A DNA stretch of 31,964 nucleotides from an uncultured Oscillospiraceae bacterium (GTDB lineage: Bacteria > Bacillota > Clostridia > Oscillospirales > Oscillospiraceae). Under the pieces are notes generated by a model. The model worked only from the letters and a program-made list of their open reading frames with translations, made no database searches and was not told the DNA's origin. Below, one piece after another: positions 1-31,964 of the stretch. A program made the translations under genes and the position numbers. Where the stretch lies: positions 1 through 31,964 of the forward strand of contig CAKTOH010000016.1 in assembly GCA_934589705.1 (NCBI GenBank). Reading direction: 5' to 3'. Positions within the stretch are counted from its first letter, which is position 1, and each line of letters starts with the position of its first letter.

Positions 1-73
1 ACACAGAAGTTAAGCTCATGTACGCCGACAATACTTGGCGGGCGACTGCCCGGGAAGATAGGTAATGCCAACA
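1..73 (+). rRNA. rrf: 5S ribosomal RNA, 3' part (5' end outside window)
   Basis: The first ~73 bases match the 3' two thirds of a bacterial 5S rRNA: the conserved loop around ACACAGAAGTTAAGC at the start, then the GGCGACTGCCCGGGAAGATAGG-like domain and the ending GGTAATGCCAAC. The 5' strand of the terminal helix lies upstream of the window, so the gene is partial and its exact 3' end (about 72-74) is estimated. A strong terminator follows within 10 bases, as expected for the last gene of an rRNA operon; 16S and 23S genes probably lie upstream. Confidence 0.93.
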
Positions 74-112: not shown

Positions 113-203
113 GCTATACATCATCTGGCGTGAGCCTGGTGATTTTTGTTGTTCTAAGATATTGTAATACCCGGTTAGACGCAGTGCTTACGACTATCAT
201 GTC

Positions 204-236
204 ATTGCGAACCAGCGCGCACGCTGGTGTGGCAAT
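204..236. repeat. Palindromic intergenic repeat (ATTGC...GCAAT type), copy 1
   Basis: ATTGC (204-208) and GCAAT (232-236) flank a perfect inner stem ACCAGCG (211-217)/CGCTGGT (222-228) with a CGCA loop. The 5' flank TGTCATTGCGA resembles the second hairpin at 3615-3654, which starts TGTCATCGC and ends GCAATGACA, so the two look like members of one short palindromic repeat family. The rest of 113-337 holds no convincing gene; the space ends in the Shine-Dalgarno site of the broken methyltransferase gene. Confidence 0.6.
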
Positions 237-1096: not shown

Positions 1097-1146
1097 GGAA
1101 ACTCTGATTCAATCGGCGAGAGTCGACGGTGAGTGATTTTCCCTAA
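1093..1146 (+). repeat. Fragment of the structured dispersed element (copy 1)
   Basis: Starting with the stop codon of the broken methyltransferase gene, the sequence CTAAGGAAACTCTGA then AATCGGCGAGAG matches the end of the full element at 3671-3824 read on its minus strand (CTAAGGAAGCTCTGA, AATCGGCGAGAG). The next ~20 bases (GACGGTGAGTGATTTT) match the minus-strand reading of the 10623-10791 copy (GACGGCGAGGATTTTT). It then ends in TTTTCCCTAA, similar to the opposite terminus, as if the middle had been deleted. Confidence 0.6.
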
Positions 1147-3582: not shown

Positions 3583-3614
3583 TAACGGAGAAATACTCAA
3601 AAAATGAAAAAAAC

Positions 3615-3654
3615 TGTCATCGCAAGCCAATGCTGTGCACTGGCCGCAATGACA
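3615..3654. repeat. Palindromic intergenic repeat, copy 2
   Basis: TGTCAT (3615-3620) pairs with ATGACA (3649-3654), and the inner GCAAGCCAaTGC/GTGCAcTGGCCGC continues the imperfect stem. The outer sequence resembles the hairpin at 204-236. It lies in the 298-base space between the ECF sigma gene and trmO, which otherwise holds the large structured element at 3671-3824 and no gene. Confidence 0.55.
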
Positions 3655-3670
3655 GCCGAATTGTTTTGAT

Positions 3671-3824
3671 TAGGGAAACTCTGAATAAATCGTCATCGGC
3701 CGAGCAGCGGATCTTTTTCAATATCCGTGCGGCTTCAAAACCGGGAAATACACAAAGTATTCCTCCGCTTTTGAACCCTTCGGCTAGAGAAAAATCTCTC
3801 GCCGATTTATTCAGAGCTTCCTTA
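3671..3824 (-). repeat. Structured dispersed element, full copy 2 (MITE-like or ncRNA-like)
   Basis: Terminal inverted repeats of 20 bp (GGGAAACTCTGAATAAATCG at 3673-3692, its complement at 3803-3822 with one change) enclose nested hairpins: GCGGAT (3707-3712)/ATCCGT (3723-3728), and a two-part stem TTCAAAA (3734-3740)/TTTTGAA (3769-3775) around GGAAATAC (3744-3751)/GTATTCC (3757-3763). The same plan recurs at 10623-10791 with paired base changes. Read on the minus strand it begins CTAAGGAAGCTCTGA, and its TAA is the stop codon of trmO. It has no coding potential and no transposase; it could be a non-autonomous mobile element, a 3'-UTR RNA structure, or both. Confidence 0.75.
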
Positions 3825-4508
3825 GCTTTCCTTTGCCACATCCACCACGGTCAGGGTGCTATCCTTGACCCGGAACCGCACATTCCAGCCGCCGAAGGTC
3901 AGGCCGTAGACCCGTTCTGGGTCTGCCTGATAGGAGGGGCGGGGGTCGTGGGACAGCACGCCGATGAGCGCGTCCCGCTTGTTTTCCGGTATCCTTTCCA
4001 GAAGGGAAGAGGGAAAGTCAACCGTCAGTAAAAAGTCTCCGGCACCCTGGGTGAAGCCCCCCAGAGCGTCGGGCTTGGCATCGCTGTAGGGAATGTAGGG
4101 CTTGATGTCGAAAATCGGCGTGCCGTCCATCAGATCGGCTCCGCCCACATGGAGCACAGTGCCATACTCCCGGGTTTCCTCCACGCCCAGCAGCCGGACG
4201 CAGGACAGACCCAGATTGTTGGGACGGAAGGGAGAGCGGGTGGCAAAGACTCCCATCCGAACGTTGCCCCCCAGACGAGGAGGGCGGACGGTAGGAGACC
4301 AGCCCTGACGCACAGCCTGGGAGAACTGCCAGATGAGCCACAGATGGGAAAAGCCCTCGATGCCCCGCAAAGCGTCGGTGTTCCGGAATTCCGGCTCAAA
4401 GACAATGGTGGATTCCAGGGCGTCCACCAGGCCGCTTTGTCTGGGAATGCCGAATTTGGTGGGAAAATCGCTTTTCATCCGGGCGATGGCCTGAATACTG
4501 GCTTCCAT
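3822..4508 (-). CDS. trmO: tRNA (adenine(37)-N6)-methyltransferase TrmO (YaeB/TsaA family)
   Basis: A 228-residue protein of the TrmO family, which uses SAM to methylate N6 of threonylcarbamoyladenosine at position 37 of ANN-decoding tRNAs. The family pattern is clear: an N-terminal segment IARMKSDFPTKFGIPRQSG, the conserved GFSHLWLIWQF, and the signature FATRSPFRPNNLGLS (about residues 87-101), followed by GADLMDGTPIFDIKPYIPYSD. The C-terminal domain (YGLTFGGWNVRF) matches the longer bacterial form. The start ATG directly abuts the stop codon of the metal permease gene with no gap, so trmO is the last gene of the znuACB operon. Its own stop codon TAA is contributed by the end of the structured repeat at 3671-3824. 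Why a tRNA modification gene rides with a metal importer is not evident. Confidence 0.92.
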   Translation of the reverse strand: MEASIQAIARMKSDFPTKFGIPRQSGLVDALESTIVFEPEFRNTDALRGIEGFSHLWLIWQFSQAVRQGWSPTVRPPRLGGNVRMGVFATRSPFRPNNLGLSCVRLLGVEETREYGTVLHVGGADLMDGTPIFDIKPYIPYSDAKPDALGGFTQGAGDFLLTVDFPSSLLERIPENKRDALIGVLSHDPRPSYQADPERVYGLTFGGWNVRFRVKDSTLTVVDVAKES

Positions 4509-5348
4509 TTAAGAGAACCTCCTTCGCATGGCAAAGGTAAGGGCGAAGAGAATCGCCAGCAGCAGGCTCACGGCGGCGCCCGCCGAGCAGCCTAAGTAGT
4601 AGGAAACGGTCAGGCCGCCCAGCCCGGCGATCAGGGCGAAGAGCACGGAAAAGCCGTGGTATTGCCGCAGATTCCGGGAAATGTTCCGGGCGGAAGCCCC
4701 GGGCAGCACCATCAGGGAATTGAGAATCAGAAGGCCCACGCTGGAAATGCTGAGCGTCACCACCACCGCAATGGCCACGGTGAAGAGGGTCTGGGATTTT
4801 CCCACGCCGATGCCCCGGGAGGCGGCCAGCTGGGGGTGAATGGCCGTCAGGGTCAGCCGGTTGGCGTAAACCAGCCAGAAAAGAGCCACCGCCAGCAGCA
4901 CCAGAGCCAGCATTCCGATTTCCGCCGGGGTAACGGAGAGTACGTCGCCGATGAGATATTTGTTGTATTTGGTGAAGCTGCCGCCGCCCAGAGTTGCCAC
5001 AAAAATGCCCAGAGCCACCGCCGTGCTGGAAAATACGCCGATGAGGGTGTCTGCCGCCTGATTGGAGCGGCTGCGCACATAGGAAAACACCAGGGCGAAG
5101 CACACGCTGAAGCCCACCGCCGCCCAGGTGGGCGCGCTCAGGCCGCAGATGGCTCCAATGGCAATGCCCGTAAAGGCCGAGTGCCCCAGGGCATCGGAGA
5201 AGAAGCTCATCCGGCCGGTGACGATCATGGTGGACAGGAGGCCGAACAGGGGGGCCATGAGCAGCATGGCGAGAAAGGCGTTTTTCATAAAGTCCCAGTG
5301 GAGCATTTCCAGGGGGAGCAGGTCACAGAGGCTGTACCAAAGGCTCAT
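4509..5348 (-). CDS. znuB: Metal (zinc/manganese) ABC transporter permease
   Basis: A 279-residue very hydrophobic protein of the ABC-3 (ZnuB/MntB/TroC) permease family with about eight predicted membrane helices. The family region GRMSFFSDALGHSAFTGIAIG (about residues 46-66) is the cytoplasmic coupling segment that contacts the ATPase, and SSVGLLILNSLMVLPGASARN (about 200-220) is the second typical conserved stretch. It would form the inner-membrane channel of the importer encoded with the ATPase (4-nt overlap upstream) and the lipoprotein. Zinc is favoured over manganese because the binding protein has a histidine-rich loop, but metal specificity cannot be read from the permease. The stop codon is immediately followed by the trmO start. 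Confidence 0.92.
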   Translation of the reverse strand: MSLWYSLCDLLPLEMLHWDFMKNAFLAMLLMAPLFGLLSTMIVTGRMSFFSDALGHSAFTGIAIGAICGLSAPTWAAVGFSVCFALVFSYVRSRSNQAADTLIGVFSSTAVALGIFVATLGGGSFTKYNKYLIGDVLSVTPAEIGMLALVLLAVALFWLVYANRLTLTAIHPQLAASRGIGVGKSQTLFTVAIAVVVTLSISSVGLLILNSLMVLPGASARNISRNLRQYHGFSVLFALIAGLGGLTVSYYLGCSAGAAVSLLLAILFALTFAMRRRFS

Positions 5349-6097
5349 AAGCTTCCTCCTTTCATGTGGAAGGCCTGGGCGAATTCCGGGGAGTTCAGAA
5401 CCTCCTGGGCAGTGCCCTGAATTTTCACGCCCCGGTCAATGAGCACCACCTGATTGGCGTACCTTGGGAGCATGGAAAAGTCGTGGGTGGTCATAAGAAT
5501 GGACAGGTCATAGGTTCTGCGGATTTCGTCCAGCATGTCCATCAGGGTCTCCATGCCCTCCACATCCACGCCGGAGAGCGGCTCGTCCAGAATCAGAATG
5601 TTCGGCATAGGCTCCAGAGCAAGAGCCAGCAGCACCCGCTGCAATTCGCCGCCGGACAGGGTGCCGATTCGCTTGTCCATTAAATCTTCCCCGTGAACCC
5701 GCTCCAGGCATTCCTTCACCAGAGCGCGCATGGGCTTGCCCAGGCCTAAGAAAGCGGGGCGTTTGCCCAGGCAGCAGGCGAAGAGGTCGGACACGCTCAC
5801 CGGGTCGCTGGGGTCGAAGGCCGGGCTCTGGGGCACATAGCCGATCCGGGGCTTTTTGCTCCGCTGACCCGGCTGGGAGAAGGCAATAACACCCTCGTAT
5901 TCCCGCTGACCCAGAATGGCCTTCAGGAAGGTGGATTTGCCGGCCCCGTTGGGGCCGATCAGAGCCAGAAGTTCCCCGCAGTGGACGTGAAGATTTACGT
6001 CCGACAGAATCGGCTCGTTTCCGATTGTTACCGTTAGATTTTCCACCCGCAGGCAGCAGGAGTGCCCGCAGGAGCCGCCGTGAATGTCCAGATTCAT
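5345..6097 (-). CDS. znuC: Metal (zinc) ABC transporter ATP-binding protein
   Basis: A 250-residue ABC ATPase. Walker A is GPNGAGKST (residues 48-56), the signature is LSGGELQR (147-154), Walker B is ILILDEP (167-173), and the H-loop is in MTTHDFSML. It powers metal uptake with the permease downstream and the lipoprotein upstream, overlapping both genes by 4 nt. An oddity is the N-terminus ahead of the first beta strand: His6, Cys10, His12, Cys14 and Cys15 sit within ten residues (HGGSCGHSCC), a possible metal-binding or sensing site; I recall similar short Cys/His leaders in other gut Clostridia. The protein starts at ATG 6097; no other start would keep this leader. Confidence 0.93.
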   Translation of the reverse strand: MNLDIHGGSCGHSCCLRVENLTVTIGNEPILSDVNLHVHCGELLALIGPNGAGKSTFLKAILGQREYEGVIAFSQPGQRSKKPRIGYVPQSPAFDPSDPVSVSDLFACCLGKRPAFLGLGKPMRALVKECLERVHGEDLMDKRIGTLSGGELQRVLLALALEPMPNILILDEPLSGVDVEGMETLMDMLDEIRRTYDLSILMTTHDFSMLPRYANQVVLIDRGVKIQGTAQEVLNSPEFAQAFHMKGGSL

Positions 6098-6981
6098 CCC
6101 AATGCCTCCCGGATCGTGTCAATGTTGTGATACATGGCCTCAAAATAGCTATCCCCGGACATGGCCATGTCCAGAGCGTAAACCTTACAGCCCGTTTCCC
6201 GGGCGATTACCTGCGCCGCGGAATCGCTGCCGCTGACCTCGGTGAAGATGGCGGGAAGATCGTGCGTTCGCACAAGCTCCGTCAGGTGAATCAGGTCTTT
6301 CGCCGAGGCCTCACTGCCGGATTCCTCTTCGACGGATTCCAGAATGGTCAGATGAAAGGCTTGGGCGAAATAGGAAAAGCCGTCGTGGAAGGGAATCAGC
6401 TCCCGGCATTGCAGGCCGGACAGTTGTTCCTCGCCATAGCTTTGCAGGGCTTCCAGCTGAGAAAGCAGGTCTTCCAGATTGGCTCGGAAGGTATCTTCAT
6501 AGTCCGGATACTGCCGGGAAAGCCCCTCGCAGATATTTTTCGCCATAACCCGGGCGTTTTCCGGGGACAGCCAGATGTGAGGATCCTCCTCGTGATGGTG
6601 GCCGTCCTCCTCATGGTGGTGCTCCTCTTCCTCGTGCCCCTCCTCACTGTGCAGCAGGGAAATTCCCTGGGATGCGTCAATGGTGGGCACGTCCAGGAGC
6701 AAATCGTCCAGAAAGTCCTCAAGCCCTGCCCCGGAGATGACTACCACCTGGGCAGCCTCCGCAGCCTTGACCTGACGGACGTTCAGGGAATAGTCGTGCA
6801 GGCAGCTGACCTGCTCCGTCACCAGCCGGGTTACGGCGAGCGGCGTGTCCTGGCACAGCCGGGAGGTAAAATCCCAGACGGGCAGGGTGGTGGCGGCGAT
6901 GGGGGCGTAGTCCGTTTTCGGGGCGCAGCCGCAAAGCAGCGCCGCCAGAGCCGCTGTCAGTATGATTTTCCAAAACTTCAT
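6094..6981 (-). CDS. znuA: Zinc ABC transporter substrate-binding lipoprotein
   Basis: A 295-residue cluster A-I (ZnuA/TroA) solute-binding protein. A lipoprotein signal peptide (residues 1-18) ends in LLCGC with Cys19 as the lipidated residue. Likely metal ligands are His62 (SCLHDYSLNV), a second histidine in the loop region, His in IPFHDGFSYFA, and an acidic ligand near the C-terminus (DMAMSGDSYFEAMYHNI). Between residues 111 and 135 lies a His/Glu-rich loop (HEEEEHHH, DGHHH), typical of zinc-binding members and used to capture Zn. It would sit on the outer face of the membrane and deliver metal to the permease. It is the first gene of znuA-znuC-znuB-trmO; a promoter with TTGACA lies 30-58 bases upstream. 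A Zur/Fur-type box was not clearly identified. Confidence 0.93.
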   Translation of the reverse strand: MKFWKIILTAALAALLCGCAPKTDYAPIAATTLPVWDFTSRLCQDTPLAVTRLVTEQVSCLHDYSLNVRQVKAAEAAQVVVISGAGLEDFLDDLLLDVPTIDASQGISLLHSEEGHEEEEHHHEEDGHHHEEDPHIWLSPENARVMAKNICEGLSRQYPDYEDTFRANLEDLLSQLEALQSYGEEQLSGLQCRELIPFHDGFSYFAQAFHLTILESVEEESGSEASAKDLIHLTELVRTHDLPAIFTEVSGSDSAAQVIARETGCKVYALDMAMSGDSYFEAMYHNIDTIREALG

Positions 6982-7010
6982 GGGGCAAAAATCCTTTCCG
7001 GATAGGCATA

Positions 7011-7039
7011 TATCATTCTTATTCTACCATAGCTGTCAA
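7011..7039 (-). promoter_or_regulatory. Sigma-A type promoter for znuA operon
   Basis: On the minus strand a perfect TTGACA (7034-7039) is followed after 17 bases by ATGATA (7011-7016), 30 bases before the znuA start. The -35 element lies two bases from the terminator of the upstream minus-strand gene. The AT-rich stretch around the -10 (AAGAATGATATATG) could hold a metalloregulator site, but no clean palindrome is visible. Confidence 0.55.
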
Positions 7040-7040
7040 G

Positions 7041-7071
7041 AAAAAAGGAAGCCTGCTCAGCAGACTTCCTT
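7041..7071 (-). terminator. Intrinsic terminator of the small unknown gene
   Basis: Read on the minus strand, AAGGAAGTCTGCT and AGCAGGCTTCCTT pair (one mismatch) and are followed by TTTTTT. It ends transcription of the gene at 7090-7320 just before the znuA promoter. Confidence 0.8.
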
Positions 7072-7089
7072 CTCGCTATGTATGGAAAC

Positions 7090-7320
7090 TCAGTGGTTCT
7101 CCACCCATTCCTTGACCTTGGTCTTGGCAAGTCTCTGGATATCCTCGGTAGGATACTTGGAGGTCTCGCCGCCGATGCCGTACACAAAGTACAGACCTTC
7201 GGGAGTCTGGAACAGATCCTCCTCATAGCCGGCGGGATCGCCCAGGTTGCCGCTGGTGAACTTATGAACCAGGGTAGCAGTCTCGGTGTCGTACTCCTTC
7301 TTGCAGATGATCTTCTTCAT
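7090..7320 (-). CDS. Small conserved protein of unknown function (76 aa)
   Basis: A 76-residue acidic protein starting MKKIICKKEYDTETATLVHKF, with a central GYEEDLFQTPEGLYFVYGIGG and ending in a charged helix (LAKTKVKEWVENH). It has no signal peptide, membrane helix or cysteine pair. I recall short Firmicute proteins of the same layout (a KxYDTETA opening, a YEE-L---GEYFLYG-GG core, and a C-terminal EW-E helix), often near mobile or regulatory genes, but no function is known to me. The gene has a strong Shine-Dalgarno site (AAAGGAGG), its own promoter (7363-7390) and its own terminator (7041-7071), so it is a self-contained single-gene unit that is probably well expressed. Confidence 0.8.
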   Translation of the reverse strand: MKKIICKKEYDTETATLVHKFTSGNLGDPAGYEEDLFQTPEGLYFVYGIGGETSKYPTEDIQRLAKTKVKEWVENH

Positions 7321-7362
7321 GGAATGAACCTCCTTTCATGAGTAATCATCGGGATAACTGTA

Positions 7363-7390
7363 ATTATACACTAATTTGTCTGGAAATCAA
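7363..7390 (-). promoter_or_regulatory. Promoter of the small unknown gene
   Basis: On the minus strand TTGATT (7385-7390) and a perfect TATAAT (7363-7368) are separated by 16 bases, 43 bases upstream of the start codon at 7320. Confidence 0.6.
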
Positions 7391-7568
7391 TAGCGAAAAA
7401 AGAAAAATCAGAACCTTTTCCTAAAAATTGGTTGATGTCTCAATTGGAAACCCTGACTAAGCCGGGAAAGAGTGTGCAAGATGCACAAAGAAATGAGGTG
7501 GTTTTCTCCCTTTGGCCGTTGTGCTTTGGATAAAAAGATGGTATGATAACAAAAAGGAGGGAATGAAA

Positions 7569-8210
7569 ATGCGGGATTTTCCAGTATTTGACACGGAAAC
7601 CGGGGTATCCAGCCTGATTCTGAAGGAGGTGCCCTATCGGAAAACAGCCTACATTCATATCCGGGATGTGGAGCCTGGGGGAATGGATGCCCATCTTCGG
7701 GAGTGTGTGGCCTTTTGCCGGGCGGTGGGGGCGGAACGGATTTTCGCCGCGGGACATGAGGCACTGACGGCCTATCCCCTGTATACCGCCGTGGTGGAAA
7801 TGACCGGCAGCCCCAGCTTCGAGGAAGGGGAGCTTGCGAGCCTCTTCCCGGTAACGGAGCAGACCGTATCCCGGTGGCGGGAGCTTTACAATCAGCGGAT
7901 GGCAGGCGTAGACAACGCGGGGACGCTGGAGGCTCGGCAGGAGCCGGAAATTCTCTCCGGCGGCACCTATTTTATCCACGACGGCGGGGAGCTGCTGGGC
8001 ATCGGCTGGCTGGAGGAAGGTCTGCTTCGAGCCATGGCCTCGGTAAAGCCCGGGGCAGGGGAGCGGGTAATGCGAACCCTGCTGTCGGCCTGTTCCGGCG
8101 AAACCCTCCGGCTGGAGGTGGCCTCCACCAATGAGAAGGCATTGCGCCTGTACAAGCGGCTGGGTTTTTTCCCCACCCGGGAGATCATCCGCTGGTATCA
8201 GGTAGGATAA
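7569..8210 (+). CDS. GNAT-family N-acetyltransferase
   Basis: A 213-residue protein whose C-terminal third is a GNAT fold: SGETLRLEVASTNEKALRLYKRLGFFPTREIIRWYQV contains the ending pattern (N-x-x-A-x-x-L-Y-x-x-x-G-F) that closes the acetyl-CoA domain. The N-terminal ~120 residues are less typical and may set substrate specificity; the acetyl-CoA phosphate-binding loop is not a clear Q/RxxGxG/A (it reads KPGAGERV), so activity is likely but not certain. Substrate is unknown. I chose ATG 7569 because AAAGGAGGG lies seven bases upstream; the in-frame ATG 7563 is too close to that site, and the upstream extension to 7512 runs through AT-rich non-coding sequence. It is transcribed alone, opposite to the neighbouring small gene. 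Confidence 0.78.
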   Translation: MRDFPVFDTETGVSSLILKEVPYRKTAYIHIRDVEPGGMDAHLRECVAFCRAVGAERIFAAGHEALTAYPLYTAVVEMTGSPSFEEGELASLFPVTEQTVSRWRELYNQRMAGVDNAGTLEARQEPEILSGGTYFIHDGGELLGIGWLEEGLLRAMASVKPGAGERVMRTLLSACSGETLRLEVASTNEKALRLYKRLGFFPTREIIRWYQVG

Positions 8211-8237
8211 AAAAGACCGGGTGTTCCGGAAAAATAC

Positions 8238-8266
8238 TTGACATCCGAAGACGGCTGTGCTATAAT
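8238..8266 (+). promoter_or_regulatory. Consensus sigma-A promoter of the ylxM-ffh-rpsP cluster
   Basis: TTGACA (8238-8243) and TATAAT (8261-8266) are both perfect and are separated by exactly 17 bases. The start of ylxM is 42 bases downstream, so this is the main promoter of the secretion/translation gene cluster. Confidence 0.92.
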
Positions 8267-8307
8267 GCCCAAGGTCAAGGGAAATGCCTTGACACAAGGA
8301 GGTTCCC

Positions 8308-8652
8308 ATGGACGCGCTGGAGATGACGCTGCTGCTGGATTATTACGGCGGTATGCTTACGGACAAGCAGAGAGACTGCTTCGATATGCGTCACAATCAG
8401 GACCTTTCCCTGGGAGAAATCGGGGAGGCGCTGGGTGTCAGCCGCCAGGCGGTGTGCGACAACCTGACCCGGACGGAAGCGTTGCTTCGCCGGATGGAGG
8501 AAAATATCGGCTGTGTCCGCAGAGACAGGGCAGTCCGCAAGGCCGCCCAGGAGATTCTCGCGGCGGCGGAAAAGCTGGAAGCTTCCCAAGAACCCGAGAC
8601 GGTCAGCCTTGCCAGGCAGATTATGGCCGCTGCCCAGACACTGAAGGAGTAA
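8308..8652 (+). CDS. ylxM: YlxM/p13-like helix-turn-helix protein linked to the signal recognition particle
   Basis: A 114-residue protein of the YlxM family, which in Firmicutes is encoded just upstream of ffh and is thought to modulate signal recognition particle function. The N-terminal half is a sigma-region-4-like helix-turn-helix: LLDYYGGMLTDKQRDCFDMRHNQDLSLGEIGEALGVSRQAVCDNLTRTE (about residues 8-57). The C-terminal half is a long charged helix. Length and gene order (ylxM-ffh-rpsP) are those of the family. AAGGAGG lies six bases before the ATG and the stop is 3 bases before the ffh start, so the two are co-translated. Confidence 0.9.
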   Translation: MDALEMTLLLDYYGGMLTDKQRDCFDMRHNQDLSLGEIGEALGVSRQAVCDNLTRTEALLRRMEENIGCVRRDRAVRKAAQEILAAAEKLEASQEPETVSLARQIMAAAQTLKE

Positions 8653-8655
8653 GCT

Positions 8656-10008
8656 ATGGCGTTTGAAGGCTTAACGGAAAAAATCTCAGCCACCTTCAAG
8701 AAGCTTCGCGGCAAGGGCCGCCTGAAGGAAGCGGATGTGAAGGAGGCTATGCGGGAGATCCGCATGGCGCTGCTGGAAGCGGACGTGAGCTATAAGGTAG
8801 TCAAGGACTTCACCAAGACGGTCACGGAACGCTGCGTCGGCACAGACGTGCTGGAATCTCTCACCCCTGCCCAGATGATCGTGAAGATCGTCAACGAGGA
8901 GCTGTGCAAGCTCATGGGCAGCGATACCAAGCATTTGAATATCAATCCCAACGGCCCCACGGTGATTATGCTGGTAGGCCTCCAGGGCGCGGGCAAGACC
9001 ACCAACGGCTCCAAGCTGGCGGGGCTTCAGAAGCGGCAGGGAAGAAACCCGCTGCTCGTCGCCTGCGATATCTACCGTCCCGCGGCTATTCAGCAGCTGA
9101 AGGTCTGCGGCGAGAAGCTGGGCGTTCCCGTTTTCGAGAAGGGCACGCAGGATCCTGTCAAAACCGCGAAGGAAGCGGTGCTCTACGCCCGTCAGCGGGG
9201 CTACGACATGGTGTTTCTGGACACCGCCGGTCGGCTCCATGTGGACGAGGCGCTGATGAATGAGCTGAAAAACATCAAGGCCGCCGTAAAGCCCGACGAA
9301 ATCATGCTGGTTGTGGATGCCATGACCGGTCAGGACGCGGTGAACGCGGCTCAGAGCTTCAACGAGTGGCTGGACATCGATTCCGTCATGCTCTCCAAGC
9401 TGGACGGCGACGCCAGAGGCGGCGCGGCTCTGTCCGTTAAGGCCATTACCGGCAAGCCCATCAAGTTCGCCGGTATCGGCGAAAAGCTGGAGGACATCGA
9501 GCCCTTCCATCCCGACCGGATGGCAAGCCGGATTCTGGGCATGGGCGATATGCTCAGCCTGATTGAGAAGGCGGAAAAGGCCTACGATGCCAAAAAAGCC
9601 GCCGAGATGGAGAAAAAGCTCAAGACCAATAAATTCACCCTCCAGGATTTCTACGACCAGATGGTGCAGATGAAGTCCATGGGCTCCATGGAGGATATCT
9701 TAGCCCAGATGCCCGGCGGGGCCAACCTGAAGGGCGTAAAGCTGGATGAGAAGGCCATGGCTCACACCGAGGCCATCATCCTGTCCATGACCCCCAAGGA
9801 GCGGGAAAAGCCCGAGATCATCGGAGCCAGCCGGAAAAAGCGGATCGCCGCCGGAGCCGGTGTCCGGGTGGAGGATGTGAATAAGCTTCTCAAATCCTTC
9901 GAGCAGATGCGAAAGCTCATCAAGCAGTTCTCCGGCCCCGGCGCCGGAAAGAAGCTCAAGCGCATGGGTCGGTTCGGCGGCCTGGGCGGCGGCTTCCCCG
10001 GGTTCTAA
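8656..10008 (+). CDS. ffh: Signal recognition particle GTPase Ffh (SRP54)
   Basis: A 450-residue SRP54 protein that binds signal sequences of nascent membrane and secreted proteins and docks with FtsY. The N domain (1-90) precedes the G domain with P-loop GLQGAGKTT (108-116), DTAGR, and TKLDG-like SKLDGDARGGAALS; the M domain (about 325-440) contains the Met-rich helices (FYDQMVQMKSMGSMEDILAQM) and the 4.5S RNA-binding motif (EREKPEIIGASRKKRIAAGAG). The C-terminus is Gly-rich (GGLGGGFPGF). Length matches the family. It follows ylxM by three bases and is followed after 79 bases by rpsP. Confidence 0.98.
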   Translation: MAFEGLTEKISATFKKLRGKGRLKEADVKEAMREIRMALLEADVSYKVVKDFTKTVTERCVGTDVLESLTPAQMIVKIVNEELCKLMGSDTKHLNINPNGPTVIMLVGLQGAGKTTNGSKLAGLQKRQGRNPLLVACDIYRPAAIQQLKVCGEKLGVPVFEKGTQDPVKTAKEAVLYARQRGYDMVFLDTAGRLHVDEALMNELKNIKAAVKPDEIMLVVDAMTGQDAVNAAQSFNEWLDIDSVMLSKLDGDARGGAALSVKAITGKPIKFAGIGEKLEDIEPFHPDRMASRILGMGDMLSLIEKAEKAYDAKKAAEMEKKLKTNKFTLQDFYDQMVQMKSMGSMEDILAQMPGGANLKGVKLDEKAMAHTEAIILSMTPKEREKPEIIGASRKKRIAAGAGVRVEDVNKLLKSFEQMRKLIKQFSGPGAGKKLKRMGRFGGLGGGFPGF

Positions 10009-10087
10009 GCCCCGGAATCCTATCGTTCGCTGAAAGCAAATTGCTTTGCGATATATATTTTTACAATCATTTTGGAGGTGAACTCTC

Positions 10088-10327
10088 ATGGTTAAGATCA
10101 GACTGAGAAGAATGGGTGCCAAGAAGGCTCCTTACTACCGTATCGTTGTGGCGGATTCTCGTTCTCCCCGCGATGGCCGCTGCATTGAGGAAATCGGCAC
10201 TTACAATCCCCTGACCCAGCCCGCTACCATCACCGTGGACGCTGAGAAGGCGCAGAACTGGATCAAGAATGGCGCACAGCCCACCGACACCGTCCGTGGC
10301 CTGCTGAAGAGTGCTGGCGTTCTGTAA
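10088..10327 (+). CDS. rpsP: 30S ribosomal protein S16
   Basis: A 79-residue protein beginning [30 protein letters not shown], the S16 signature, and continuing [13 protein letters not shown]. It is full length for the short Firmicute form. The Shine-Dalgarno site GGAGGTGA is very strong. Gene order ffh-rpsP-khpA-rimM-trmD is the usual one in Clostridia. The 79 bases before it contain a short stem (AAAGCA/TGCTTT near 10035-10049), too weak to call a terminator. Confidence 0.98.
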
Positions 10328-10348
10328 GATCCCAAAGGAGAATCCCGA

Positions 10349-10579
10349 ATGAAAGAACTTTTGCTGTACATGGCAAAAAATCTGGTGGATGATCCTGAGG
10401 CAGTCACCGTAACCGAAATCGATGGCGAGGACGGCAAGGTGCTGGAGCTGCGTGTTGCCGAAGGCGACATGGGCAAGGTGATCGGCCGCCAGGGACGGAT
10501 CGCAAAAGAGATCCGTACCATCATTAAGACTGTAGCCCAGCGCACTGGCGAGAAGGTCACGGTCGAAATCGTGGATTAA
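10349..10579 (+). CDS. khpA: RNA-binding KH-domain protein KhpA
   Basis: A 76-residue single KH-domain protein. The RNA-binding GxxG loop is GRQG in GDMGKVIGRQGRIAKEIRTIIK (about residues 41-62). KhpA works with KhpB/EloR in several Firmicutes to bind many transcripts and influence cell elongation and division. Gene position directly after rpsP (21-base gap, AAAGGAGA site) is conserved. A terminator follows 8 bases after the stop, so this gene may end the promoter-proximal half of the cluster. Confidence 0.96.
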   Translation: MKELLLYMAKNLVDDPEAVTVTEIDGEDGKVLELRVAEGDMGKVIGRQGRIAKEIRTIIKTVAQRTGEKVTVEIVD

Positions 10580-10586
10580 AGCGAGG

Positions 10587-10612
10587 ATGCGTGACGTATG
10601 TCACGCATTTTT
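10587..10612 (+). terminator. Intrinsic terminator inside the ribosomal-protein/tRNA-modification cluster
   Basis: ATGCGTGAC (10587-10595) pairs perfectly with GTCACGCAT (10600-10608) around a GTAT loop, followed by TTTTTCG-type tail. It lies between khpA and rimM and would separate rpsP-khpA from rimM-trmD unless read through. Confidence 0.8.
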
Positions 10613-10622
10613 CGTCTCTCTT

Positions 10623-10791
10623 GTTGGGAAAACTCTGATGAAACCGTCTGCGGCTGAGCGGCGGGCCTTTTGCCCCCTGGCGGCGGTACGAAAAATGGGA
10701 AATACATCCAGTATTCCCACATTTTCCGTACCTTGCCAGGAAACAAAAATCCTCGCCGTCAGCTCTTGCCGGTTTCATCAGAGCTTCCCCG
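10623..10791 (-). repeat. Structured dispersed element, full copy 3 (MITE-like or ncRNA-like)
   Basis: Terminal inverted repeats (GGGAAAACTCTGATGAAACCG from 10626 region and its near-complement ending at 10790) enclose nested stems, the clearest being GGTACG (10685-10690)/CGTACC (10727-10732) around GGGAAATAC (10697-10705)/GTATTCCC (10711-10718). Compared with the 3671-3824 copy, the outer stem reads TGAAACC/GGTTTCA where that copy reads ATAAATC/GATTTAT, and the inner stem differs on both arms as well, so pairing is kept while sequence changes. It sits between the khpA terminator and rimM, antisense in orientation to the cluster if the minus-strand reading is taken as the element's own. No ORF within it is credible. 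Confidence 0.75.
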
Positions 10792-31888: not shown

Positions 31889-31964
31889 GCTAGTGTAGCA
31901 CAGTCGGTAGTGCATCTCACTCGTAATGAGAAGGTCGCCTGTTCGAGTCAGGTCACTAGCTCCA
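31889..31964 (+). tRNA. tRNA-Thr (anticodon CGT)
   Basis: A complete 76-base tRNA: acceptor stem GCTAGTG (31889-31895)/CACTAGC, D-arm GCAC..GTGC, anticodon stem TCTCA/TGAGA with loop CTCGTAA giving anticodon CGT (reads ACG, Thr), T-arm GCCTG-TTCGAGT-CAGGT, discriminator T and encoded CCA. It ends at the last base of the window, so any downstream terminator or tandem tRNA is not visible. Confidence 0.96.

What the first reader, a model, noticed from the sequence alone, without database searches (positions are those of the whole stretch)
3671..10791. Dispersed 150-170 bp element whose nested stems are kept by paired base changes
Seen directly: the copies at 3671-3824 and 10623-10791 share ends (GGRAAACTCTGA / TCAGAGCTTCC), a core GGGAAATAC..GTATTCC hairpin, a CGGCYGAGCRGCGG block and overall size. 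Where they differ, both arms differ together: the outer stem is ATAAATCG/CGATTTAT in one and TGAAACCG/CGGTTTCA in the other; the mid stem is TTCAAAA/TTTTGAA in one and GGTACG/CGTACC in the other. That covariation argues for selection on structure, as RNA or as a DNA cruciform, more than for simple transposon terminal repeats. No transposase or ORF is present. I know no described family with this layout.
Basis: partly seen in the sequence, partly recalled or inferred. Interest (0 to 1): 0.78.

Follow-up and report, generated by a model that had tools for sequence, protein, structure and literature searches.

The report
Hairpin-shaped jumping element of gut Clostridia
The two repeats are copies of a small, gene-less jumping DNA element, apparently spread by an IS5-type transposase, whose two arms have changed together through evolution; whether that pairing matters as DNA or as a single strand is still open.

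Summary
In detail: window 3674-3821 (148 bp) and 10628-10788 (161 bp) are copies of one nested palindrome, with a truncated end at 1097-1122. The element is a non-autonomous transposon (MITE). Copy 1 has a 4-bp duplication, TTAG/TTAG; 61 of 119 copies have a perfect one, and three G007 insertions have empty sites in G006 without a gap at the junction. Full-length IS5-family elements with the same ends and duplications occur in other relatives. It is abundant: matches in 129 of 300 genomes of one bacterial family. The covariation is real: among 68 lineages variable interior pairs are Watson-Crick in 82% of cells against 47% shuffled. It is not that of a plus-strand RNA (interior G.U 63, A.C 87; RNase P control 36 and 10); a moderate minus-strand wobble bias leaves that strand open, as RNA or single-stranded DNA. 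Copies decay after insertion; compensation appears between lineages. Unrelated MITEs with the same ends in other phyla are also palindromic. Best reading: IS5-type MITE whose palindrome is kept in transposing lineages. New member of a known kind.

The parts
3674..3821 (+). MITE copy 1 (148 bp; 13 bp shorter than copy 2)
   Evidence: 116.8 bits, E 2.4e-25
3670..3673 (.). left target-site duplication TTAG
3822..3825 (.). right target-site duplication TTAG; bases 3822-3824 are the stop codon of the TrmO gene on the minus strand
3743..3763 (+). conserved central hairpin GGGAAATAC..GTATTCC of copy 1
10628..10788 (+). MITE copy 2 (161 bp), between the small gene 10349-10579 (KH-type by recall) and rimM; flanks TTGG/CCGA, so no intact target duplication
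   Evidence: (162.7 bits, E 8.6e-36)
10697..10717 (+). conserved central hairpin of copy 2
1097..1122 (-). truncated copy: right-hand terminal repeat only, preceded by CTAA at 1093-1096
   Evidence: (I2: 90% over 30 nt, 1093-1122 against 3796-3825); only E 0.11 with R1

Best explanation
A MITE: a gene-less element of about 160 bp moved in trans by an IS5-family DDE transposase (NF033581; DUF772 + DDE_Tnp_1) that uses GGAAnCTCTGAA-type ends and YTAR-like targets with 4-bp duplication. Shown: ends, duplications, empty sites, many copies, autonomous IS with matching ends in relatives. Inferred: trans-mobilisation. Copies decay after insertion mainly by single, uncompensated changes, while the lineages that go on transposing keep both arms complementary along the whole length. 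So the palindrome most likely serves the element's own spread or tolerance rather than a host function at each site (inferred). Whether it acts as duplex/cruciform DNA or through one single strand (the minus strand) is not settled; I lean to DNA.
For: Perfect 4-bp duplications at the exact ends: 62 of 116 copies (ends fixed by the search pattern), 61 of 119, 20 of 60 in distant relatives. Empty sites in G006 for three G007 insertions, one exact over the 60 bases shown (CTAA-161 bp-CTAA against CTAA), two with substitutions but no gap at the junction. Autonomous 1217-bp IS: L282 with TTAG/TTAG, L280 with CTAT/CTAT, L284 with such ends but unequal flanks; transposases 300-314 bits against cut-off 140. 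IS5 target motif YTAR: PMC10359306, passages. Covariation. Compensated share of changed pairs: 1% below 3% divergence, about 60% at 18-30%. Consensi of 8 subfamilies: 473 of 488 pairs Watson-Crick, 4 G.U, 7 A.C, 4 other.
Against: Among transposase loci of 14 MITE-carrying genomes (12 of them Clostridia; PF01609, PF05598) none is an IS with GGAAnCTCTGA ends except a deleted remnant in a planctomycete. G202 and G223, which hold the matching IS, have no R1 match, and G169 has one. G007's own IS has the sibling ends GGCAGCACCGCACAAT. About half of copies lack a perfect duplication, and most other comparisons are not clean empty sites. Private changes are rarer at paired than at unpaired interior sites (0.0096 against 0.0161 per base, p 0.009) and 7 of 58 classified ones are compensated in the same copy, so decay is not fully neutral, or some arm-to-arm copying occurs. 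The minus-strand wobble bias speaks against a purely duplex explanation.
Confidence: 0.85

Rival explanations
1. The fold is selected on one single strand, the minus strand, as an RNA (regulatory, or making the insert harmless in transcripts) or as single-stranded DNA; the element is still mobile.
For: Minus strands of four subfamily consensi fold 14-22 kcal/mol better than plus strands. Over 68 lineages minus-strand G.U exceeds A.C 129 to 75 in paired columns (p 0.0002 by cell; 28 against 12 columns, p 0.017); with the symmetric mismatch positions 229 to 84, those positions alone 100 to 9, mainly three columns. RNAalifold on 112 copies: minus strand 370 to 49.
Against: Interior paired columns: 87 to 63, 16 against 10 columns, p 0.33 (by cell 0.002-0.06 by threshold). 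In consensi of clusters of 2 or more copies, where private decay is averaged out, interior paired columns show none: 9 to 9 and 11 to 10. Private changes none: 23 and 18, p 0.53. RNAalifold itself favours G.U on either strand: on the wrong strand of RNase P it gives 106 to 26. Alternative pairs are as often transversion- as transition-type (239, 224). Gammaproteobacterial family: 54 and 47. No clear orientation rule to genes (41, 27, 21, 18 of 107; crude ORF calls). No Rfam match.
Confidence: 0.18
2. Arms are kept alike by copying, that is template switching or gene conversion between the arms (quasipalindrome correction), with no selection.
For: Near-perfect Watson-Crick consensi; mid-stem pairs differ between subfamilies in neighbouring blocks (by eye); 7 of 58 private paired changes compensated in the same copy.
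Against: Below 3% divergence 1 compensated against 101 one-sided changes, so copying is not frequent on that time scale; some conserved mismatches persist between lineages.
Confidence: 0.2
3. Terminal inverted repeats only, with a chance or compositional interior.
For: Terminal repeats covary trivially because one transposase binds both ends.
Against: Interior pairs (beyond column 18) are Watson-Crick in 87% of cells against 64% shuffled (max 65%) and 24-34% when slid; the structure was derived from these lineages, which favours it over the slid versions.
Confidence: 0.02

Closest known systems
IS5-family insertion sequences, NF033581 (transpos_IS5_4) group
   Same: Ends GGAAnCTCTGA and a 4-bp duplication in L282 (TTAG) and L280 (CTAT); similar ends GGAAACTCTGCACAAG with CTAG in a Granulicella plasmid IS, L275
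   Different: The element has no transposase and, by eye on L282, shares only the ends with the IS
Long-stem bacterial MITEs (Correia/NEMIS, ERIC, RUP)
   Same: About 100-200 bp, multicopy; a review says transcripts of all such repeats are highly base-paired long stem-loops (PMC2229807, passages)
   Different: Different ends and target duplications (recalled); no sequence relation tested
Borrelia plasmid intergenic repeats with compensatory transversions
   Same: Compensatory changes including transversions, read there as RNA structure (PMC2674063, passages)
   Different: In the passages seen the stem-loops are shorter, and no target duplication or wobble control is mentioned
REP/REPIN elements of TnpA_REP
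   Same: Dispersed palindromes, high copy
   Different: 20-40 bp (PMC3733652, start of abstract in listing); no 4-bp duplication (recalled)

Membership tests
MITE of IS5-type transposase | Short terminal inverted repeats at both ends | tested here: met
MITE of IS5-type transposase | Target-site duplication of the transposase's type (4 bp, YTAR) | tested here: met
   Copy 1 TTAG/TTAG; 61 of 119 copies perfect; 43 of the 62 perfect ones are CTAA, TTAA, TTAG or CTAG; copy 2 of the window has none
MITE of IS5-type transposase | Precise presence/absence at orthologous sites | tested here: met
   Three G007 sites empty in G006. Window site 1: no element in the 260 bp printed after TrmO in five relatives (L266-L269, L271; L270 and L272 were cut at the wrong place), but G001 has a copy there. 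Site 2: none between KH gene and rimM in L149
MITE of IS5-type transposase | No transposase gene inside, multicopy | tested here: met
   20-142 R1 matches in each of 14 Clostridia genomes (may count both strands of one copy)
MITE of IS5-type transposase | Autonomous IS with the same ends in the same genome | tested here: inconclusive
   Found in relatives G202, G223, G169 (one R1 match in G169), not in 14 searched MITE-carrying genomes; the window's genome is not held
MITE of IS5-type transposase | Mobilised in trans | not testable with these tools
   needs a transposition assay
Structured RNA family | Helices kept by compensatory change | tested here: met
Structured RNA family | Wobble pairs preferred on the functional strand (G.U well above A.C) | tested here: inconclusive
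   Plus strand not met: 94 and 151, 60 and 116, interior 63 and 87. Minus strand: moderate bias in all columns, none in interior columns of subfamily consensi. RNase P, 13 sequences: 36 and 10 (54 and 30 to 17 and 8 by threshold), RNAalifold 95 and 9
Structured RNA family | Conserved transcription or genomic context | tested here: inconclusive
   No clear orientation rule (crude); transcription not testable here

The most novel reading that the evidence does not exclude
Short elements moved by this IS5 group need, or strongly profit from, a full-length palindrome: in at least three unrelated interiors with the same ends (Clostridia, Gammaproteobacteria, a largely planctomycete set) the arms pair, with compensated changes and no plus-strand wobble preference. 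That would mean a hairpin or cruciform step, perhaps on one strand, in the mobility of small IS5 derivatives, or selection for a folded, harmless insert.
Probability: 0.25. Interest if true: 0.65.

Novelty: new member of a known kind. Interest (0 to 1): 0.4.

Why it matters
It explains a very common repeat of gut Clostridia (matches in 129 of 300 genomes of one family) as a transposon and ties it to a transposase group. It is also a caution: strong covariation in a dispersed repeat is not by itself evidence of a functional RNA. Comparing G.U with A.C on each strand, and asking at what divergence compensation appears, helps to tell the readings apart from sequence, though here it leaves the minus strand open. 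If the palindrome is needed for movement, that is a testable requirement for small IS5 derivatives.

Tried and rejected
RNA-family search: only a tRNA in the window; sub-threshold microRNA matches at copy 2 were rejected as a generic long-hairpin effect. Phage and plasmid records: no blastn match to copy 2. L030 looked like a 1312-bp IS flanked by CTAA, but is three MITEs around a gene resembling ribF (recalled). End-repeat scans of most other transposase loci gave nothing. Insertion at stop codons: 11 of 54 sites with a perfect duplication against 37 of 295 YTAR sites nearby, from crude ORF calls that also put 22 of 54 inside a frame; not pursued. Rows dropped: the 112-copy alignment holds 113 sequences of 150-165 bp with standard ends, less one duplicate; shorter, longer and GGC-ended copies and window copy 1 (148 bp) are not in it.

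Controls found faulty on checking: the RNase P controls assumed that loci from the genome search are turned to the match; they are not, so several sequences were on the wrong strand or mis-cut. redoes it with 13 sequences on the right strand and replaces them (L265, partial, left out).

Literature: no paper held both 'Oscillospiraceae' and 'miniature inverted'. The other searches showed 25 of 100, 12 of 443, 15 of 51, 12 of 12 and 5 of 5 papers; none of those listed describes this family by title or the abstract start shown.
Full report
OBSERVATION. The two copies lie at 3674-3821 and 10628-10788. Both fold as one long hairpin-rich structure, much better than dinucleotide shuffles (z -6.6 and -10.1). 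A truncated right-hand end, preceded by CTAA, lies at 1097-1122. Copy 1 sits at the stop codon of a TrmO gene (Pfam TrmO_N, TrmO_C); copy 2 sits between a small gene (10349-10579, KH-type by recall) and rimM, upstream of trmD.

IT IS MOBILE DNA. The ends there are fixed by the pattern, the flanks are not: 62 of 116 copies have a perfect 4-bp direct repeat exactly at the ends, none a 5-bp one; 43 of the 62 are CTAA, TTAA, TTAG or CTAG. A covariance model from 29 copies has 20-142 matches in each of 14 Clostridia genomes (both strands of a palindrome can score, so copies may be fewer). Of 121 copies extracted, 61 of the 119 with flanks on both sides have the perfect repeat. Three G007 insertions meet empty sites in G006...CTCTAA-element-CTAAAGC... 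against ...CTCTAAAGC... exactly, and a 124-bp copy and a TTAT site with substitutions but no gap at the junction; other comparisons are less clean. The window's site 1 has no element in the 260 bp after TrmO in five relatives (L266-L269, L271), but G001 carries a copy at the same gene end; site 2 has none in L149.

WHICH TRANSPOSASE. In a planctomycete genome the ends GGAAGCTCTGATT flank a deleted IS5-family transposase (L238, 680 bp). A Granulicella plasmid IS has ends GGAAACTCTGCACAAG/GGAGCCTCTGCGCAGG and CTAG duplications. Of 300 genomes of the bacterial family of G004, 15 have an NF033581 transposase over cut-off. L282 and L280 are complete 1217-bp elements with GGAAnCTCTGA ends, TTAG/TTAG and CTAT/CTAT, and 344- and 330-aa transposases; L284 is like them with unequal flanks. 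YTAR is the published duplication of IS5 (PMC10359306, passages). A sibling MITE of the same length with ends GGCAACACCGCACAAT matches an IS in G007 with ends GGCAGCACCGCACAATTG/GGCAATACCGCACAGAAA and CTAA duplications. An IS with the GGAAnCTCTGA ends was not found in 14 searched MITE-carrying genomes, G202 and G223 lack R1 matches, and the window's genome is not held.

THE COVARIATION IS REAL. In 29 copies 30 of 53 pairs change on both sides. In 60 copies from 43 genomes (mean identity 62%) 43 of 55 pairs have two or more Watson-Crick states, each in at least 2 copies. Combining sets into 68 lineages, variable interior pairs are Watson-Crick in 82% of cells against 47% (max 50%) with partners shuffled; interior pairs overall 87% against 64%, and 24-34% when slid.

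WHICH STRAND, IF ANY. In duplex DNA a G.T on one strand is an A.C on the other, so only selection on one single strand makes G.U exceed A.C. The plus strand shows no such excess: 94 G.U and 151 A.C in 112 copies, 60 and 116 in the 60 distant copies, interior by lineage 63 and 87. RNase P of the same genomes, 13 sequences on the right strand: 36 and 10 on a Watson-Crick-only structure (54 and 30 to 17 and 8 by threshold), 95 and 9 on RNAalifold pairs. Told against my reading: read on the minus strand, the element has G.U 129 to A.C 75 over all paired columns (p 0.0002 by cell, 28 to 12 columns, p 0.017) and 229 to 84 with the symmetric mismatch positions; minus strands fold 14-22 kcal/mol better. 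For it: in interior columns the bias is 87 to 63 (16 to 10 columns, p 0.33; by cell 0.002-0.06 by threshold); in consensi of clusters of two or more copies it vanishes in interior paired columns (9 to 9 and 11 to 10), remaining only in the few conserved mismatch columns (18 to 2 and 23 to 0); private changes show none (23 and 18, p 0.53). So a plus-strand RNA is out; a minus-strand contribution is possible. My first RNase P control was partly on the wrong strand; after mending it the contrast is smaller, and I raised the single-strand rival from 0.08 to 0.18 and lowered the best explanation from 0.88 to 0.85.

WHEN COMPENSATION APPEARS. Among pairs of copies, compensated changes are 1% of the classified changed pairs below 3% divergence, 13% at 3-6%, 22% at 6-9%, 59-64% at 18-30% and 31-58% beyond (pairs of copies are not independent). 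Consensi of eight subfamilies are Watson-Crick in 473 of 488 pairs. So copies decay mainly one side at a time after insertion, and complementarity is kept or restored in the lineages that go on transposing. That points to selection on the element's spread or tolerance, not on each host site (inferred). Arm-to-arm copying at a low rate is a live rival.

GENERALITY. The 116 copies of the first scan free of N fall into several unrelated interiors. Of 41 interiors folded without their ends, 30 have z below -2.5 (range +0.6 to -11.1); six singletons with z between -1.1 and +0.6 lack duplications and may be chance pattern matches. Six families analysed: Clostridia 26 copies, 52 pairs, 22 with compensation, G.U 18, A.C 29; Gammaproteobacteria 26 copies, a chain of hairpins, 58 pairs, 23, 54 and 47; a largely planctomycete set (one Thiotrichales copy among those seen) 18 copies, 37 pairs, 8, 7 and 23; three small ones of 9, 5 and 4 copies with 1, 0 and 1 compensated pairs, 1 and 8, 2 and 7, 2 and 2.

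KNOWN OR NEW. Bacterial MITEs with long stems are well known (PMC2229807 and PMC10969869, passages), and compensatory transversions were reported for Borrelia repeats (PMC2674063, passages). I found no paper on this family in the rows shown by the searches named. I file it as a new member of a known kind.

Noticed in passing
window 203-235; also L268, L271, L073, L200, L223, L226: A second dispersed palindrome, CATTGCGAACCAG..CTGGTGTGGCAA, occurs once in the window and in six other fetched loci; a palindrome of similar look lies at 3614-3655 just left of copy 1.
   Followed up: partly
L224 5292-5452, L188 2285-2445, L192 1667-1827; L315, L316, L318, L319 and others: Sibling MITE of the same length with a different end type (GGCAACACCGCACAAT), matching a different IS5 element: both ends switched together, as if the mobilising transposase had changed.
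   Followed up: partly
L195 7727-7887 (G001:C25): G001 carries a copy (CTAA/CTAA) at the 3' end of its TrmO gene, in the same arrangement as window copy 1 (TTAG/TTAG); independent insertion into the same gene end or a shared old one was not resolved.
   Followed up: no
L162 7786-8104; L188 2285-2610; L030 1780-2103: Adjacent insertions sharing one target copy (TTAG-element-TTAG-element-TTAG and alike); G006 has a single element at the orthologous L162 site.
   Followed up: partly
L110 3250-3410: A copy whose interior is reversed relative to the A/G difference between left and right ends, so that difference is not a fixed polarity.
   Followed up: no
window 1-70 and 31889-31961: The window starts in what looks like the end of a 5S rRNA gene (recalled; not an Rfam match) and ends with a tRNA gene.
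   Followed up: no
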